Shown: piece by piece, positions 31,357 to 38,193 of the stretch
Layout of the letters: every line of letters begins with the position of its first letter
Position numbering within the stretch: the first letter of the stretch is position 1
NCBI GenBank assembly: GCA_012730035.1
Contig: JAAYBQ010000204.1
Location: forward strand, 1-38,193
DNA length: 38,193 nucleotides
Direction of reading: 5' to 3'
Source: Spirochaetota bacterium
Lineage (GTDB): Bacteria; Spirochaetota; UBA4802; UBA5550
Notes under the pieces: generated by a model
The model's database searches: none
Told to the model about the DNA's origin: nothing
The model's input: the letters and a program-made list of their open reading frames with translations, nothing else
Translations under genes and position numbers: made by a program

Positions 31357-31430
31357 CGGGGCGTGGCTCAGTCCGGTAGAGCGCGTGGTTTGGGACCATG
31401 AGATCGGAGGTTCGAATCCTCTCGCCCCGA
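31357..31430 (+). tRNA. tRNA-Pro (anticodon TGG)
   Basis: 74 bases. The acceptor stem CGGGGCG pairs with CGCCCCG plus discriminator A. The D arm is GCTC...GAGC, the anticodon stem CGTGG/CCATG with loop TTTGGGA (anticodon TGG, codon CCA), and the T arm GGAGG-TTCGAAT-CCTCT. The 3' CCA is not encoded. Confidence 0.96.
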
Positions 31431-31443
31431 AGAAGTACAATAT

Positions 31444-31517
31444 GCGCCCGTAGCTCAGCTGGATAGAGCAACAGCCTTCTAAGCTGTGGGCCAGAGGTTC
31501 GAATCCTCTCGGGCGTG
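31444..31517 (+). tRNA. tRNA-Arg (anticodon TCT)
   Basis: 74 bases, 13 bases after the tRNA-Pro. Acceptor GCGCCCG pairs with CGGGCGT plus discriminator G. The anticodon stem ACAGC/GCTGT has loop CTTCTAA (anticodon TCT, codon AGA). The T arm is AGAGG-TTCGAAT-CCTCT. The 3' CCA is not encoded. Same transcript as tRNA-Pro. Confidence 0.96.
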
Positions 31518-31520
31518 CAT

Positions 31521-31559
31521 AAAAAAGACGCTGCCGGTTAAAGGCAGCGCTTTTTTTTT
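31521..31559 (+). terminator. Terminator of the tRNA operon
   Basis: AAAAAAGACGCTGCC, loop, GGCAGCGCTTTTTTTTT: stem CGCTGCC/GGCAGCG plus an A/C mismatch and an A/T-paired base, with a nine-T tail. It begins 4 bases after the tRNA-Arg. Confidence 0.93.
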
Positions 31560-31673: not shown

Positions 31674-32057
31674 CTATTTAATCACGATTTTTAAAAACAG
31701 AAAAAATAACAAGGCATGAACCATACCCGAAACGATGAACACAATAACCTGGTTATCGATTAATTCATAGAAACAGAATGCGACAGGTGAGACTTGTCCG
31801 AATCCAGCCAGAAAAATTACCGGGCCATTAGCAATCATCAGATAAATACGTTTATTCGCCGGTAAATTTGTCCGGTCAAAAAAAATTATAAGAATATTTA
31901 AAAGCACACTGAATATTAAAAAAACCACCTCAATAAAAAACATGTTTAACATTGTACCAATAATATCGTCAGAACGATATAATACCGGGAAAAACCAGAA
32001 CAAGACCCACGGGATCAAATTAAATAAAAAGAAAGATCTATAAATATATTTATTCAT
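31674..32057 (-). CDS. Small four-helix membrane protein
   Basis: A 127-residue protein from ATG 32057 (AAGGGG 5-10 bases upstream). Four hydrophobic segments are visible: SFFLFNLIPWVLFWFFPVLY, MFFIEVVFLIFSVLLNILII, YLMIANGPVIFLAGFG and VIVFIVSGMVHALLFFLFL. It is AT-rich, unlike the housekeeping genes to the left. It is downstream of the lipoprotein gene on the same strand (23-base gap). No family is recognised. Confidence 0.6.
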   Translation of the reverse strand: MNKYIYRSFFLFNLIPWVLFWFFPVLYRSDDIIGTMLNMFFIEVVFLIFSVLLNILIIFFDRTNLPANKRIYLMIANGPVIFLAGFGQVSPVAFCFYELIDNQVIVFIVSGMVHALLFFLFLKIVIK

Positions 32058-32079
32058 ACAACCCCTTAATTCAACCAGT

Positions 32080-32451
32080 TTAATACAGTTTAAAAACAAA
32101 TCTTATACTGCCCGTGGTATCTTTATCTTCAGGCTTTATCAATATTTTACACCTGTTATCGTACCAGTCTGCCCTGATATTTTTGTCTGTTAAACCGTTA
32201 AGTTTTATTTTATTCATTATTTCGAAAGGATAATGACTGTAATAAAAAATACAACCTTTATCTATGTTCCCTTTTATCTTTATCTCAAGAACGCATGGAT
32301 TCTTTAGACCTGGGAATAATACAATCTCTTCGATTGGATTTCCTTTCAGGATATATTCTTTTTCAATACCTGTTTGACTTTCGGAACAGTTCGAAAAAAT
32401 AAACGAGAGTATTATAAAATAAACAACCGTGATGTTCCTTTTATTTATCAT
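32080..32451 (-). CDS. Small lipoprotein
   Basis: A 123-residue protein from ATG 32451 (AAGGAA upstream; the longer frame from 32484 has no support). Signal MINKRNITVVYFIILSFIFSNC ends in a cysteine, making it a likely lipoprotein. The mature part is beta-rich and acidic-basic mixed, with VLEIKIKGNIDKGCIFYY and CKILIKPEDKD. It is AT-rich. An internal stretch (32135-32255) exists as a second, frameshifted copy at 37662-37783. No family recognised. Confidence 0.6.
   Translation of the reverse strand: MINKRNITVVYFIILSFIFSNCSESQTGIEKEYILKGNPIEEIVLFPGLKNPCVLEIKIKGNIDKGCIFYYSHYPFEIMNKIKLNGLTDKNIRADWYDNRCKILIKPEDKDTTGSIRFVFKLY
32135..32255. repeat. Intact copy of a 121-base direct repeat
   Basis: This part of the small lipoprotein gene matches 37662-37783 in the same orientation, with about four substitutions and a one-base difference. 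The two copies are 5.5 kb apart. Confidence 0.85.
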
Positions 32452-32606
32452 AAGAATTATTTCCTTACCTCCAGCCAACACCATACATTACCAAGGCAAT
32501 CGAGTGACTCATCATCTGAAGAAAGACTGTTTAATCTGTTACGCAGCATCCCGATACAACATTTTTAACATTACCGGTTTCAGGATTCAGGCGGGCAATA
32601 ACCCCA

Positions 32607-35600
32607 TCACCCTCCGTAAAACCTTTCCAGCAGCCTCTCCGCGATAAAGGTTTCACTCCTTGCAGGGTCAGCAACAACAATAGCCTCGCTGTACGATGCT
32701 TCGGAATAAAGAAGAGAGAGCCCTGCCGCGTCTCTTACCTCCACTCCGTTGAACTTTCTTTCAAAGGCAAGTATAAGGTCAGCAAAGGATGAGTCGTTTG
32801 ACACAATCCCCCATGAATGGATACCTGAAATAACAACGGGGATTCCGCTATGGCTGCACACCCTTTCAAGCACGCGCCTGAAGTTAAGGTAAAGGAACAG
32901 CTGCTGCCGCCTTGTCATTTTATGAAGCAATGAGGGTATGGGGTTAAACGCGAAGCTGTGCCAGAACGGCACCCTCTTTCTCATGCAGGAGGAGAGCCCG
33001 CCGCTGGACCTGTACATAAGCATTACACCCTTAATCTTCCGGTCGGAATCTGAAGCAAGCCTGAACACCTGAAGCGCCGGGTCACTTACAGCTTCCGGGA
33101 TTCCTGAAAGACAGATACTCCCCATATCGCCGTAATAGGCGTCAACAGCAGACCTTGAGGCGTATATCCTGTATGGCTCAAAAAACCTCTTACCCTGTTC
33201 ACTGAAGGACTCAAGAATCTCCTGCCACTTTCCCCTCTCTGCCGTGAGGCGGGCAAAACCTGTAAGCTTACGGAGAGCCGCATCAATAGCCTCCATCGAA
33301 AGCTTCTTCGATTTAAGCAGAATAAACGGCGCGAGAAGCTTCTCCACCTCTTCATTCCGGGAGATCAATGACTCAAGTGCGCCCTTCAGATCACTGTCCC
33401 CTGCAACAGCCCTACCCAATGTGTCAATTGTTTCAACAAGCATCTCAAGCTGACCTAAGTGTATAAGGTCAATGGCAACGTCGTTCCTGAGGACTTCAAG
33501 CCTCCCCTGAAGCGTTGCGTCACCGCTGTACCGGTCAAGGAGAAGCGCGGCGGCATAACGGGCAAAGTCATCACCTGTCTCTGCCTGTTTACCTGCCACT
33601 ATGAGGGCAGTTATAATCTTCTCTTTTGCGTTCATGTAACCGGTTTCACGGAGAAGGGATTCAAAAAGCTCCATCTGTGACTTTATATGGGCCGATGCTT
33701 TTTCAAGGGAGCGCACCTTTTTTTCAAGCTTCTGCTTCTCAGCACCTTCGGTGAGCGAAGCCATCACACTGCCGTATTTAAAAAGCTCCCTCTCCTTCGG
33801 GGAGTATGCCTCTTTCAGTTTCTCGAACTCCATATTTATGAAATAGGTCACATTATCAGGGGATACCGCTGCCTCAGACTCAATGCAGCTCCATGCCTGC
33901 TTTATCACAGTCATGTTAACCTGTGAGCGCACCTCCGCGCTGAGGAGTTTGTCGAAGGATGAGACTTCACGCACAGGGACTCTGAACTCATGAGAAACGG
34001 GAATCGGTTCTATCTGCGCAACAGACCTGTACTGATGCATGAGCCCGGCAAAGGTGTTCGACTTGTACGAAATTGCGCCTGAAAGCCCCGGTATTACTGA
34101 ATGGAGCAGAGGGCGATGAAGCGGAATACCCAGGGCATCCAGCTCTCTGACACGCTCATCATCCCAGCTGCGGTCATCACCTGCCACAACCTCACTGCGG
34201 TATCTGTCTATATCCACTCTTCTATCGGGGTAGTGTTTCAGATAAGCGGATATCCATGCGTGGTGCGGTACAGTAATCTCCCCCCTGCCGGCATTAAGCT
34301 GTGAAATCACCTGCGGGTCAAAATCCTCTTTTGTTATGCCAAGGGCCTTCAGCTTCGCGTTAAAGGATTTTTCGCTGTAAAGCTCAAGTTCAGCCCCGTC
34401 AAAGTACCTTTGAGCAACAGGGTAGGACGGGTCCACTCCCCCATTGGTCTCCACCATCTCAATATAGGCTTCCCGTTCATCGGGAGAGTGAGAGAGCATA
34501 CGCCTTGTGTGCCATACATATATGTTCTTTCCTCCATCATCCTCAATAGCAAGAATAAGCCGTTCAAAGAGGCTCGCAGCATCGGGGCTCTTCAGAGCGG
34601 AGAGCCGGGCCGCAAAGTATCCGCACAGGAAGATCCCTGAGCCAGTGCCCAGCAGCGCCACTATTATCGAAAGGTAGGCACGCAGCTCCACAACAAAATC
34701 GTAGTTCGAGAACCCCTTTCTCTTTCTCTCATACACAGAGCGGGATATATCATATTTATACAGGCTCATCTTCAGCGTCTTAACATCAAGGTTAAAACAC
34801 CGCTCCGGGAAGTTCTCCCTGAAGCCTGTTTCAATGGCAGGCATATTTTCAATTATGGCCACAAGCTGCACAAAGTCAATGCGCCCTGACATTGTGTACA
34901 TAAAGTGAAGCAGGTTTGTCTTCATAAAGAGGATGGTAAAGGGATTGTCAACCTTGAGCATCTGCCAGGCCTCCCTGTATCTTTCAAGAAGGTCCTCTTT
35001 TTTAAGTTCACTTAGAGTGAACCCTGAAAGGGGCCTCCCCACGTACTTTACAAGCACCACATCCCTCAGAAGGCGCGTATCACCGCTCCCCAGGAACTCC
35101 CTGTCAAAGGGGGGTGCCCCCTTCATGGTAACAAGGAACTCCCCTATGAGTTTCAGCGCATCAAGGTGGTGTTCATTCCACCTGCGCCAGTCATTGTCGT
35201 TCTCAATTCGGGGGAGAATGATATACTGAAGAAACGCAGCGGGGTTTATGCCCTGCTCTGCAAGTTCAGTAAGGAGTACTGTGAGGGGTGAGAGCACGGC
35301 GCTCCTCTCAGCCCCGGAGCATAAAAATTTTTCAAGTATGGCGTCAAGTTTGTTAAGGTATTGCGCGGGGTTCAGCCATGATTTATTCCCGATGCGGCAG
35401 CAGGCTTCAAAGAGGGGCTGAAGGTTCAGCCTCTCATCAGGGGGCCTCAGCAGGTCAAGTTCAACCGAGGCAAGGAAGCGGCTGCACTGCCCCTCTGACA
35501 TAAGAGAGCATTCAGCAAGGCGGAGCAGCGCTCTCTTAGGCCTGTGCCCATCAGGGAGAAGAGGCGCTTCACCGGGATCATCGCCTCCATCATCGCTCCT

Positions 35601-35663
35601 CTCCTCATCAAGGAACTCGCTGTCATCGTCACTGTATGTTATTTCATTATCTGTTAATGGCAT
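32607..35663 (-). CDS. Unrecognised 1018-residue protein
   Basis: A single uninterrupted frame of 1018 residues. Residues 1-40 are very acidic (DDDSEFLDEERSDDGGDD). Residues 41-320 are helical. There is one strongly hydrophobic stretch at about 329-353 (YLSIIVALLGTGSGIFLCGYF), possibly membrane-inserted. Residues 640-670 look like a short coiled coil, and 680-830 are helical repeat-like. The C-terminal 180 residues (from AYYGDMGSICLSGIPEA) look like a separate globular alpha/beta domain. No signal peptide and no motif I can tie to a known enzyme. The start has no clear ribosome binding site. GC content is higher than the AT-rich genes beside it. It lies 118 bases downstream of fic on the same strand and may share its transcript. 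Confidence 0.8.
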   Translation of the reverse strand: MPLTDNEITYSDDDSEFLDEERSDDGGDDPGEAPLLPDGHRPKRALLRLAECSLMSEGQCSRFLASVELDLLRPPDERLNLQPLFEACCRIGNKSWLNPAQYLNKLDAILEKFLCSGAERSAVLSPLTVLLTELAEQGINPAAFLQYIILPRIENDNDWRRWNEHHLDALKLIGEFLVTMKGAPPFDREFLGSGDTRLLRDVVLVKYVGRPLSGFTLSELKKEDLLERYREAWQMLKVDNPFTILFMKTNLLHFMYTMSGRIDFVQLVAIIENMPAIETGFRENFPERCFNLDVKTLKMSLYKYDISRSVYERKRKGFSNYDFVVELRAYLSIIVALLGTGSGIFLCGYFAARLSALKSPDAASLFERLILAIEDDGGKNIYVWHTRRMLSHSPDEREAYIEMVETNGGVDPSYPVAQRYFDGAELELYSEKSFNAKLKALGITKEDFDPQVISQLNAGRGEITVPHHAWISAYLKHYPDRRVDIDRYRSEVVAGDDRSWDDERVRELDALGIPLHRPLLHSVIPGLSGAISYKSNTFAGLMHQYRSVAQIEPIPVSHEFRVPVREVSSFDKLLSAEVRSQVNMTVIKQAWSCIESEAAVSPDNVTYFINMEFEKLKEAYSPKERELFKYGSVMASLTEGAEKQKLEKKVRSLEKASAHIKSQMELFESLLRETGYMNAKEKIITALIVAGKQAETGDDFARYAAALLLDRYSGDATLQGRLEVLRNDVAIDLIHLGQLEMLVETIDTLGRAVAGDSDLKGALESLISRNEEVEKLLAPFILLKSKKLSMEAIDAALRKLTGFARLTAERGKWQEILESFSEQGKRFFEPYRIYASRSAVDAYYGDMGSICLSGIPEAVSDPALQVFRLASDSDRKIKGVMLMYRSSGGLSSCMRKRVPFWHSFAFNPIPSLLHKMTRRQQLFLYLNFRRVLERVCSHSGIPVVISGIHSWGIVSNDSSFADLILAFERKFNGVEVRDAAGLSLLYSEASYSEAIVVADPARSETFIAERLLERFYGG

Positions 35664-35781
35664 CTGATTATTAAATAAAACGGTTTTGATGTTGCTTCAA
35701 TTGATTTCAATGCAATTTCAGTTAAAGATGATGCAAACTGATCAGGTTCAGAGAGAGCTGCCGCTCCATTCACCTTATTGA

Positions 35782-37305
35782 TCAATTAAGAGGAGATTCC
35801 ATCTCCTGTAAAATAAACCTTGTAAAATGTTTAATATCTTTATCAGTTGCCACAAGATCGAGTGATTTCATATACTCAGTTCTTTCTGTTACACGAAGTA
35901 TTGTCCATGGATAACCGGCAGACACAAGCATGAGGTTCATAAGAAATCGTGCGAGCCTGCCGTTACCATCCATGTAAGGATGAATATAAACAAAGAAATA
36001 GTGTCCAAGAACAGCCCTCACCGCACCATTCTCCTCCTTCTGAAGCAAGTCAAAGAGTGTCTCCATCGTATCAACAACAAATTCATAAGGCGGGGGTATA
36101 TGCATCGCATCTTTTATATAAACCGGATTTCTCCTGTAACCAACAAGATCTGAAGCTTTAATAATACCTGCCTGAACCATAGGCATAAACAATTCACGAT
36201 ACCAGTCAGATAAACTGTCCCTGAACGTGCTGCCGGGATCTTTTCCATTTAATGCAGCGACGATACTTGTTAAAACAGAATCACAGGAAAGAGAATAACC
36301 TTTCGCCGCCAGAGCATCACGCAGATTACTGTCGGAGTTTTCCTTATCAGGGTCCCAGTCACCGGACCTTACTCTTTTAATCAGATCATCCGTAACTCTG
36401 AAACCCTCTATTGAGAGAGAATGATAGGCATCTTCATTGATCTTCTCCCTGCTTCTGCTTATTATACTCCCCGTATCGATGCTCCTTATGTCGATAAAAG
36501 GCCCGGGAAACAGTCTAATCACATCATCCCTGAAATTATTCCACATCGAAATTATTCGTGGAACAGATGGAGAACTAAACCTTCCCGATCCAATTGACGG
36601 AACAAACTTGATAAAAGGATTTACCGGTTTCACAGAATACCCGGCGAGTTTCATATCTTTTATTATAGTCAGTGATGCTGAACTGTTTCCAATCTCGATA
36701 TACGCTCCGGCAACCCTCTCTGCCGCCGCGATGCTGCCGATATTAATAAGCGCTCTTGTGATATCGGAGACAGATTCAACCATTGACAAAGCAATTTCAA
36801 TATTCTGCGCTTTATTCTGATAATATAACGCAGGAGCCTTCGCGACAGCATAAGGTAGAGGCATAAGGCTTAAACCGTGTATATCGCTCAATACATCAGG
36901 GATCGATTTATCATCCTGATAAAGCAGAAGTGAAACACCATGAGGCAGATGAACTGTGGTATTACTGTTCTTTCTCGTGAGGACAATCATCTGTGCCGGG
37001 ATTGTTGTCTCCCCTGTATATATATCAAGAGAAGATTGCGGTGATAAGCAGTATCCTTCTTTACCGAAACGTTCAGCCAGATACTGCCTGACAAAAGGCC
37101 AGAACATACTGAACCAGGCGGTACTGCTGCCTGACGATACAGAAGAAACAAGCATATACCAGCCCCGGACAATCCTTTCGAGAAATCCGGAATTTGTTAA
37201 TATCTCTCTTGATTTAACAGAAAGTTTATCTGAAGAGATAACTCCTTCATTGCTCACTTTACCTGCTTCTTCAAGAGCATCTGCTATTCTATCATTCAGT
37301 TCCAT
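35782..37305 (-). CDS. Fic-domain protein with AbiEi-like N-terminus and built-in inhibitory motif
   Basis: About 507 residues from ATG 37305; an in-frame GTG at 37314 is also possible, and neither has a good ribosome binding site. Residues 20-60 resemble the AbiEi/DUF6088-type winged helix of type IV antitoxins (LTNSGFLERIVRGWYML). Residues 290-310 hold SLSIEG (S299-x3-E303-G304), the inhibitory [ST]xxxE[GN] helix of self-restrained Fic enzymes. The Fic core is HPYMDGNGRLAR (H445), matching the AMP-transferase motif HPFxDGNGRxxR with all key residues kept. It may modify proteins by AMPylation and bind its own promoter. Upstream lie repeated ACTATA sites. Fic proteins with this layout occur in other bacteria. 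Confidence 0.9.
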   Translation of the reverse strand: MELNDRIADALEEAGKVSNEGVISSDKLSVKSREILTNSGFLERIVRGWYMLVSSVSSGSSTAWFSMFWPFVRQYLAERFGKEGYCLSPQSSLDIYTGETTIPAQMIVLTRKNSNTTVHLPHGVSLLLYQDDKSIPDVLSDIHGLSLMPLPYAVAKAPALYYQNKAQNIEIALSMVESVSDITRALINIGSIAAAERVAGAYIEIGNSSASLTIIKDMKLAGYSVKPVNPFIKFVPSIGSGRFSSPSVPRIISMWNNFRDDVIRLFPGPFIDIRSIDTGSIISRSREKINEDAYHSLSIEGFRVTDDLIKRVRSGDWDPDKENSDSNLRDALAAKGYSLSCDSVLTSIVAALNGKDPGSTFRDSLSDWYRELFMPMVQAGIIKASDLVGYRRNPVYIKDAMHIPPPYEFVVDTMETLFDLLQKEENGAVRAVLGHYFFVYIHPYMDGNGRLARFLMNLMLVSAGYPWTILRVTERTEYMKSLDLVATDKDIKHFTRFILQEMESPLN

Positions 37306-37311
37306 ATCATT

Positions 37312-37521
37312 CACTATAAATTAAATACAGGTTTTACCAGAAATTACATTATCTATTTCTTTGCAATAATCAATTAAAGAACAAATTCACCGCTAATAAC
37401 CGTTGATTTTACGATTCTGTTCGATATTTTACTATATTTATAACCCTTTATAGTCAAAATATTGTATTTACTATAAATTACAATCATAATTCAGTAGAAA
37501 TTAAATTATTGATTTACTATA
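37312..37521. promoter_or_regulatory. Cluster of ACTATA repeats upstream of fic
   Basis: TTTACTATA occurs at 37428-37436, 37467-37475 and 37513-37521, with an inverted TATAGT at 37449-37454 and CACTATA at 37312-37318 against the fic start. Such spaced repeats suggest operators, perhaps for the winged-helix part of the Fic protein. The AT-rich region holds no other gene besides the fragment at 37662-37783. Confidence 0.45.
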
Positions 37522-37661
37522 TATTAAATACATTTCAAATAAATGATGTGTCATGCTTTTCCAATTACAGTACACGACCTTCGGTGAGAAAATTTGTATC
37601 GATTACTTTTATTTATATATGAGTGAGTCACTGGTTCGCAGGATACGCTATTGGCCCTGAA

Positions 37662-37783
37662 TTTATCAATATTTTACACCGGTTATCGTACCAGTCTGCC
37701 CTGATACTTCTGTCTGTTAAACCGTTAAGTTTTTATTTTATTCATTATTTCAAAAGGATAATGACTGTAATAAAAAATACAAC
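37662..37783 (-). pseudogene. Frameshifted fragment of the small lipoprotein gene
   Basis: About 96% identical to 32135-32255, in the same orientation. It has one extra T in a T run (AGTTTTTATTTTA instead of AGTTTTATTTTA), which breaks the frame. It covers only the middle of the gene, with no start and no signal peptide. It lies downstream of the SEC-C gene and just left of it in the window. Confidence 0.85.
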
Positions 37784-37816: not shown

Positions 37817-38193
37817 TCATTCCCCAACTCCGCAGCACTTCTTGTACTTCTTTCCGCTGCCGCAGGGGCATGGATCATTTCTTCCCGGTTTATCAGGATT
37901 AGCCTTTGCAGCCCCGGACTGGAAAAGACTAACTTTATCTTTATTGTATTCATTGATAAAAGATTCAATCTGATTTTTATCTGAAATATCGATGCCTTTT
38001 CTTTCAGCTTCTTTAATGAGCTGTTTTCCAGGGCTCCAGTTTTCTTCATTATTTGATTCTTCAATAATACTTTCTGAAATACCAAGCAATCGCCGCGCAA
38101 TTATTTTCCCGTCGGTTACATAACCTTTATCGCCGCAAAATGTTAAAAAGGCAGTCATTACAGGTTCGACAGCTTCAAAATATGAATTATCAG
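37817..38193 (-). CDS. SEC-C domain protein, 5' truncated by window edge
   Basis: The frame is open to the window end: codons upstream of the internal ATG (38158) continue with no stop, reading [15 protein letters not shown]. The C-terminal SEC-C zinc motif [18 protein letters not shown] (CxC...CC) is intact. The preceding 90 residues are helical and charged ([16 protein letters not shown]). SEC-C motifs bind zinc and are found at the end of SecA and in many stand-alone proteins of unknown role. The full protein cannot be identified from this end. Confidence 0.85.

What the first reader, a model, noticed from the sequence alone, without database searches (positions are those of the whole stretch)
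32135..37783. Large gene plus Fic module bracketed by two copies of a lipoprotein fragment
A 121-base segment of a small lipoprotein gene recurs 5.5 kb away in the same orientation, with about 96% identity and a one-base insertion. Between them sit the 1018-residue gene and the AbiEi-like/Fic gene. This is what is left when a block inserts by homologous exchange or duplication. The block follows two tRNA genes, a common boundary for accessory DNA, though no integrase or att repeat is seen.
Basis: partly seen in the sequence, partly recalled or inferred. Interest (0 to 1): 0.72.

Follow-up and report, generated by a model that had tools for sequence, protein, structure and literature searches.

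The report
Accessory genes beside a tRNA cluster
The repeated lipoprotein piece is real but is only a broken leftover copy; the genes between the two copies have different origins and do not travel together, so this is an ordinary patchwork of acquired genes next to tRNA genes, though the Fic gene in it carries an apparently undescribed, widely conserved control array.

Summary
The repeat is real: 32135-32255 and 37662-37783, 4 substitutions plus 1 inserted base (~96%), E ~1e-53, and only two places in the genome. The left copy lies inside an intact small-lipoprotein ORF. The right copy is an internal piece with both gene ends missing and no similarity beyond its edges. The 'mobile block' reading fails on geometry (the lipoprotein's own 5' part lies inside the supposed block), on composition (the 1018-aa gene has native codon usage, z 0.4; the Fic, lipoprotein, membrane-protein and SEC-C genes are atypical, z 2.8-5) and on comparison (relatives of the 1018-aa and Fic genes are never neighbours). 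The tRNA hunch is good: four related genomes (three genera) have tRNA Pro-Arg-His in that order, and in three genomes a serine-integrase gene, prophage-borne in two, abuts tRNA-His. The window lacks tRNA-His exactly where atypical DNA begins. So: an accretion zone at a phage-used tRNA site, with a dead duplicate fragment. Side results: the 1018-aa protein is a scattered, mainly spirochaete, family with a GNAT-like C-terminal fold (structure only). The Fic subfamily, carried on plasmids and viral contigs, has direct repeats spaced 23-24 bp upstream in 22 of 24 promoters, which suggests self-regulation. I found no description of this.

The parts
31357..31430 (+). tRNA-Pro (TGG)
   Evidence: ARAGORN; Rfam
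31444..31518 (+). tRNA-Arg (TCT); last element shared in order with relatives, where tRNA-His follows
31528..31550 (.). terminator-like hairpin after the tRNAs (bidirectional)
31674..32060 (-). small membrane-protein ORF, 32% GC, strongly atypical codon usage (z 5.0)
32080..32484 (-). intact small ORF, probable lipoprotein (start likely at the internal ATG of MINKRN; Cys after a hydrophobic N terminus); no convincing relative found
32135..32255 (-). repeat copy 1, inside the lipoprotein ORF (codons ~77-117)
32607..35663 (-). 1018-aa protein of a mainly spirochaete family; native codon usage
32607..33206 (-). its conserved C-terminal domain (YGDMGGIC, FNPxxS, YLxxR), GNAT-like in the predicted model only
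   Evidence: no sequence-profile support
35782..37314 (-). 510-aa Fic protein; atypical codon usage (z 3.6)
   Evidence: Pfam Fic 1.6e-13
35956..35982 (-). Fic catalytic motif HPYMDGNGR
36403..36420 (-). class II inhibitory motif SLSIEG, (S/T)xxxE(G/N)
   Evidence: class definition PMC9755527
37467..37526 (-). three ~14-base direct repeats with 23-base period (37467-37480, 37490-37503, 37513-37526) upstream of the Fic gene
37662..37783 (-). repeat copy 2: isolated internal fragment of a lipoprotein gene, frameshifted, no start or stop
37817..38191 (-). SEC-C motif protein, 5' end open at the contig end; atypical codon usage

Best explanation
The region after tRNA-Arg is a stepwise accretion zone at a tRNA cluster that related bacteria use as a prophage integration site. 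Small AT-rich acquired genes (membrane protein, lipoprotein, Fic, SEC-C) surround an older, native-looking gene for a 1018-aa protein. The second repeat copy is the dead remnant of a partial lipoprotein duplication, trimmed on both sides; it is not an attachment site and not the edge of a transposing unit. The Fic gene is a separate mobile cassette: a self-inhibited (class II) putative AMPylase with its own upstream array of direct repeats, probably bound by its N-terminal domain to hold expression down. Shown: repeat anatomy, composition, unlinked distribution, tRNA synteny, integrases at tRNA-His, repeat arrays. Inferred: order of events, foreign origin of the AT-rich genes, array binding, AMPylation.
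For: Sharp repeat edges and no flank similarity; the copy lacks gene ends and has a frameshift. Codon-usage z: 1018 gene 0.43, Fic 3.6, lipoprotein 2.8, membrane protein 5.0, SEC-C 2.8. The 1018 family is in 18 of 393 phylum genomes and 13 named loci, in differing neighbourhoods without Fic, and absent from plasmids and viral contigs. Fic relatives are on 76 plasmid records at E<=1e-60, 74 of them near full length, and on 2 viral contigs. tRNA Pro-Arg-His order in G005, G014, G016, G002; serine integrase touching tRNA-His in G005, G016, G003; G014 and G016, same genus, show the empty and the occupied site.
Against: No relative of the same genus was available, so no direct empty-site allele of the window region. 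The contig ends 400 bases after the second copy. The missing tRNA-His may just be unassembled: the MAG also lacks Phe, Trp, Tyr and Ile tRNAs among the 31 found. A spirochaete donor could share codon usage with the host, so a native look does not prove residence. No integrase remnant or tRNA-His 3' end is in the window or bin.
Confidence: 0.68

Rival explanations
1. A single 5.4-kb block (1018-aa gene plus Fic gene) integrated by homologous exchange through the lipoprotein sequence, leaving a copy at each end.
Against: A simple crossover would split the gene between the two sides; here one side has the whole gene and the other a piece with neither end. The genes inside differ in codon usage and are unlinked elsewhere.
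Confidence: 0.1
2. Everything after tRNA-Arg is the left part of one degraded integrative element or prophage that used tRNA-His and carried all these genes, including the 1018-aa gene.
For: tRNA-His is a demonstrated integrase site in relatives and is missing here; Fic relatives sit in viral contigs.
Against: No integrase or phage structural gene in the 6.7 kb seen; the relatives' integrase is absent from the genome; the 1018-aa gene is unknown on plasmids and viral contigs and has native codon usage.
Confidence: 0.18
3. An ordinary tandem duplication of the lipoprotein area, later separated by insertion of the Fic cassette and eroded by deletion; the tRNA plays no role.
For: Copies in the same orientation, both substitution types present (2 silent, 2 replacement) plus a frameshift, as in a decaying duplicate.
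Against: No trace of duplicated flanks on either side; the native-looking 1018-aa gene also lies between the copies.
Confidence: 0.2
4. Assembly chimera in the metagenome bin joining unrelated DNA after 31.5 kb.
For: Contig from a 442-contig bin; abrupt composition change; loss of synteny after tRNA-Arg.
Against: The 1018-aa gene, to the right of the change, has host-like codon usage and a 72% relative in the same family.
Confidence: 0.05

Closest known systems
tRNA-flanked genomic islands / prophage integration hotspots
   Same: Accessory, compositionally atypical genes begin right after a tRNA cluster; relatives carry an integrase gene at the adjacent tRNA-His.
   Different: No integrase, att repeat or second boundary is visible in the window; the known integrases here are large serine recombinases.
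Class II Fic AMPylases (SoFic, FICD, CccR of Yersinia)
   Same: HPxxDGNGR catalytic motif and N-terminal-side (S/T)xxxE(G/N) inhibitory motif; CccR also represses its own promoter through bound repeats (PMC9755527).
   Different: About 290 residues precede the inhibitory motif, most of them with no family match; CccR has a C-terminal HTH and two inverted repeats 26 bp apart, here the array is direct repeats every 23-24 bp.
AbiEi antitoxin of type IV abiE systems
   Same: Promoter repeats extend to about 23 bp and are bound for autorepression (PMC3985639).
   Different: AbiE has inverted repeats and a separate AbiEii toxin gene; no AbiEi profile match to the Fic N terminus.
GNAT acetyltransferases (TacT, AtaT2, GmvT, Hat1)
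   Same: Predicted fold of the last ~200 residues of the 1018-aa protein (probability up to 1.0, TM about 0.5 to targets).
   Different: Foldseek E 0.03-1 only, no sequence-profile support, canonical acetyl-CoA loop (Q/R)xxGx(G/A) not seen at its expected place.

Membership tests
Transposon or integron-like mobile block bounded by the repeat | Both ends carry the same terminal sequence and the empty site has one copy | tested here: not met
   The intact gene with both ends is at the left; the right copy is internal only; no relative with an empty site was available
Transposon or integron-like mobile block bounded by the repeat | Cargo found together elsewhere | tested here: not met
   Relatives of the two genes have unrelated neighbourhoods
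tRNA-integrated genomic island | Breakpoint at a tRNA gene used by integrases | tested here: met
   Synteny with relatives ends right after tRNA-Arg where tRNA-His should follow; serine integrases at tRNA-His in three relatives
tRNA-integrated genomic island | Integrase and flanking att repeat present | tested here: not met
   No tRNA-His 3' end in the window, no relative of the integrase in the genome; right side not assembled
Fic/AMPylase, class II | HPx(D/E)GNGRxxR catalytic motif | tested here: met
   HPYMDGNGRLAR, HPYMDGNGR invariant in the aligned relatives; Pfam PF02661 1.6e-13
Fic/AMPylase, class II | Inhibitory (S/T)xxxE(G/N) motif on the N-terminal side | tested here: met
   SLSIEG at residues 299-304, conserved
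Fic/AMPylase, class II | AMP transfer to a protein target | not testable with these tools
   Needs biochemistry
AbiEi-fused Fic | AbiEi-type N-terminal domain | tested here: inconclusive
   No profile match at E<=1; fold model too poor in residues 24-148 to judge
GNAT | GNAT fold | tested here: inconclusive
   Many GNAT hits by fold, none significant; none by sequence

The most novel reading that the evidence does not exclude
The window's Fic gene belongs to a broadly mobile Fic subfamily (Spirochaetota, Pseudomonadota, Bacteroidota; plasmids and viral contigs) that is a one-gene self-controlled toxin: a self-inhibited AMPylase whose uncharacterised N-terminal domain binds a fixed-pitch array of three or more direct repeats every 24 bp upstream of its own gene. 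The unit sequence drifts between hosts while the pitch stays fixed, as expected if protein and operator coevolve.
Probability: 0.6. Interest if true: 0.55.

Novelty: new member of a known kind. Interest (0 to 1): 0.34.

Why it matters
It shows how a direct repeat that looks like the footprint of a mobile block can be a dead duplicate, and which tests tell the two apart. It adds a spirochaete case of a tRNA cluster used by serine-integrase prophages. The by-product, a conserved 24-bp array upstream of a widespread Fic subfamily, is a simple, testable prediction about how a common class of mobile Fic genes is kept in check. The scattered 1018-aa family is an unexplained protein with a possible acyltransferase-like domain.

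Tried and rejected
Campbell-type integration through the lipoprotein: rejected on geometry. Extended decayed duplication: no flank similarity beyond shuffles. Dispersed lipoprotein family: no other copy in the genome and only two weak hits in 393 phylum genomes (E 5e-4 and 8e-4, near chance for that many genomes). Viral or plasmid home of the lipoprotein or the 1018-aa gene: none found. Sec7 (E 0.07) and ovoA (E 0.04) hits: treated as chance. tRNA-His elsewhere in the genome: not found, with 16 of 17 relatives ringing as positive control, but the bin is incomplete. AbiEi identity of the Fic N terminus: no support. Fold of the Fic model: recovers Fic structures but the N-terminal part is low confidence. 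Structure search of the 1018-aa model against viral proteins: mostly helical tape-measure look-alikes, no significant match.

Full report
Observation. The 121-base segment is real. Copy 1 is 32135-32255 and copy 2 is 37662-37783, same orientation, 4 substitutions and one inserted base. The flanks of the two copies show no similarity beyond it. In the window's own assembly (86% complete, 442 contigs) there is no third copy. Copy 1 lies inside a complete 134-codon ORF on the minus strand (probable lipoprotein, start likely at the internal ATG of MINKRN). Copy 2 covers codons ~77-117 only, with a frameshift and no start or stop.

Why it is not the edge of a mobile block. If a block had entered through the lipoprotein sequence, the gene's two ends should be split between the sides. 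Instead the gene's 5' part (32256-32484) lies between the copies and the whole gene is on the left. Losing 32256-37661 would leave a gene without a start. The DNA between the copies is also not of one kind: the 1018-aa gene is 51% GC with codon usage indistinguishable from 19 other genes of the window (z 0.43), while the Fic gene (z 3.6), the lipoprotein (2.8), the membrane protein (5.0) and the SEC-C gene (2.8) are atypical.

Distribution. Relatives of the 1018-aa protein occur in 4 of 59 near relatives (the tally includes the window's own genome) and 18 of 393 genomes sampled across the phylum (72% identity at best, in a genome of the same family), and in 13 named records: Treponema, Leptospiraceae, other Spirochaetota and one Margulisiibacteriota bin. 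Their neighbourhoods differ and never include the Fic gene. None was found on plasmids or viral contigs. The Fic protein has full-length ~40% relatives on many plasmids (Alpha-, Beta- and Gammaproteobacteria, Bacteroides) and on two viral contigs, beside a terminase-like gene and beside a long tape-measure-like gene. The two genes are therefore independent; only the Fic gene behaves as mobile.

The tRNA boundary. In four relatives of three genera tRNA-Pro, tRNA-Arg and tRNA-His stand in this order; in G005, G014 and G016 the nitroreductase gene lies beside them as in the window, in G005 with the LysR gene too. In G005, G016 and G003 a serine-recombinase gene (Pfam Resolvase and/or Recombinase, PHROG integrase) overlaps or abuts the 3' end of tRNA-His, with tail-protein genes following in G005 and G016. 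G014, same genus as G016 with near-identical flanks, has the site empty. In the window tRNA-Arg is followed by a terminator-like hairpin and then AT-rich genes. tRNA-His is not found in the bin although the same query finds it in 16 of 17 relatives. Among 31 tRNAs found, other types are missing too, so the absence is suggestive, not proof.

The Fic gene. Pfam Fic 1.6e-13, HPYMDGNGR intact, inhibitory SLSIEG upstream: a class II arrangement by the definition in PMC9755527. Its ~240-residue N-terminal region is conserved in 13 relatives but matches no Pfam or NCBIfam family and no relevant PDB sequence, so 'AbiEi-like' is unproven. Upstream of it, three ~14-base repeats stand 23 bases apart (0 of 200 shuffles at 15 bases; 1 of 60 in the 14-base test). 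In 24 upstream regions of this subfamily, 22 show a best triple with 23-24-base spacing that at most 1 of 60 shuffles reaches. Mean autocorrelation z is 4.0 at lag 24, 2.6 at lag 48 and 0.6 at the next best lag. Of 54 control upstream regions, 5 passed, three of which were the same Fic promoters reached from other start points; the two true ones had other spacings. The repeat sequence differs among hosts. The two exceptions are the Bacteroides p5482 relative and L094 (best lag 33 in 280 bases, though a 24-base triple appears). Inference: the protein, probably through its N-terminal domain, binds its own promoter. The literature searches made here found no description.

The 1018-aa protein. The AlphaFold2 model (pLDDT 78, pTM 0.42) is about 820 residues mostly of helices followed by a mixed domain. 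Foldseek places that domain among GNAT acetyltransferases repeatedly but without significance (E 0.03-1, probability up to 1.0, TM to target about 0.5); sequence profiles do not support it. Function remains open; an acyltransferase-like domain is the best lead.

Verdict. Real repeat, ordinary explanation: a dead partial duplicate inside a mosaic accessory zone beside a tRNA cluster that relatives use for prophage integration. The Fic promoter array is the most interesting by-product.

Noticed in passing
window 37467-37526; L024, L025, L026, L093, L150-L154, L156-L167 upstream of the Fic gene: Direct repeats with a fixed 23-24-base pitch upstream of this Fic subfamily in 22 of 24 cases, unit sequence varying between hosts.
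   Followed up: yes
L074:4735-6376, L073:2292-3956, L142:325-1994: Large serine recombinase genes convergent with and touching the 3' end of tRNA-His in three spirochaete genomes; tRNA sites are better known for tyrosine integrases (own knowledge).
   Followed up: partly
window 32607-35663; L080-L091: Scattered family of ~1000-aa proteins, nearly all spirochaete, with conserved YGDMG and FNP motifs and a GNAT-like C-terminal fold in the model; one copy in a Margulisiibacteriota bin (possibly misbinned).
   Followed up: partly
L073:2359-3956: The serine integrase of G016 is split into two ORFs (frameshift or decay), unlike the intact one in G005.
   Followed up: no
L153:2989-4526: In a Mesorhizobium plasmid the Fic relative is broken into two ORFs and flanked by two IS5 transposases.
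   Followed up: no
L154:1592-4527: Two Fic-family genes in tandem on an Aminobacter plasmid.
   Followed up: no
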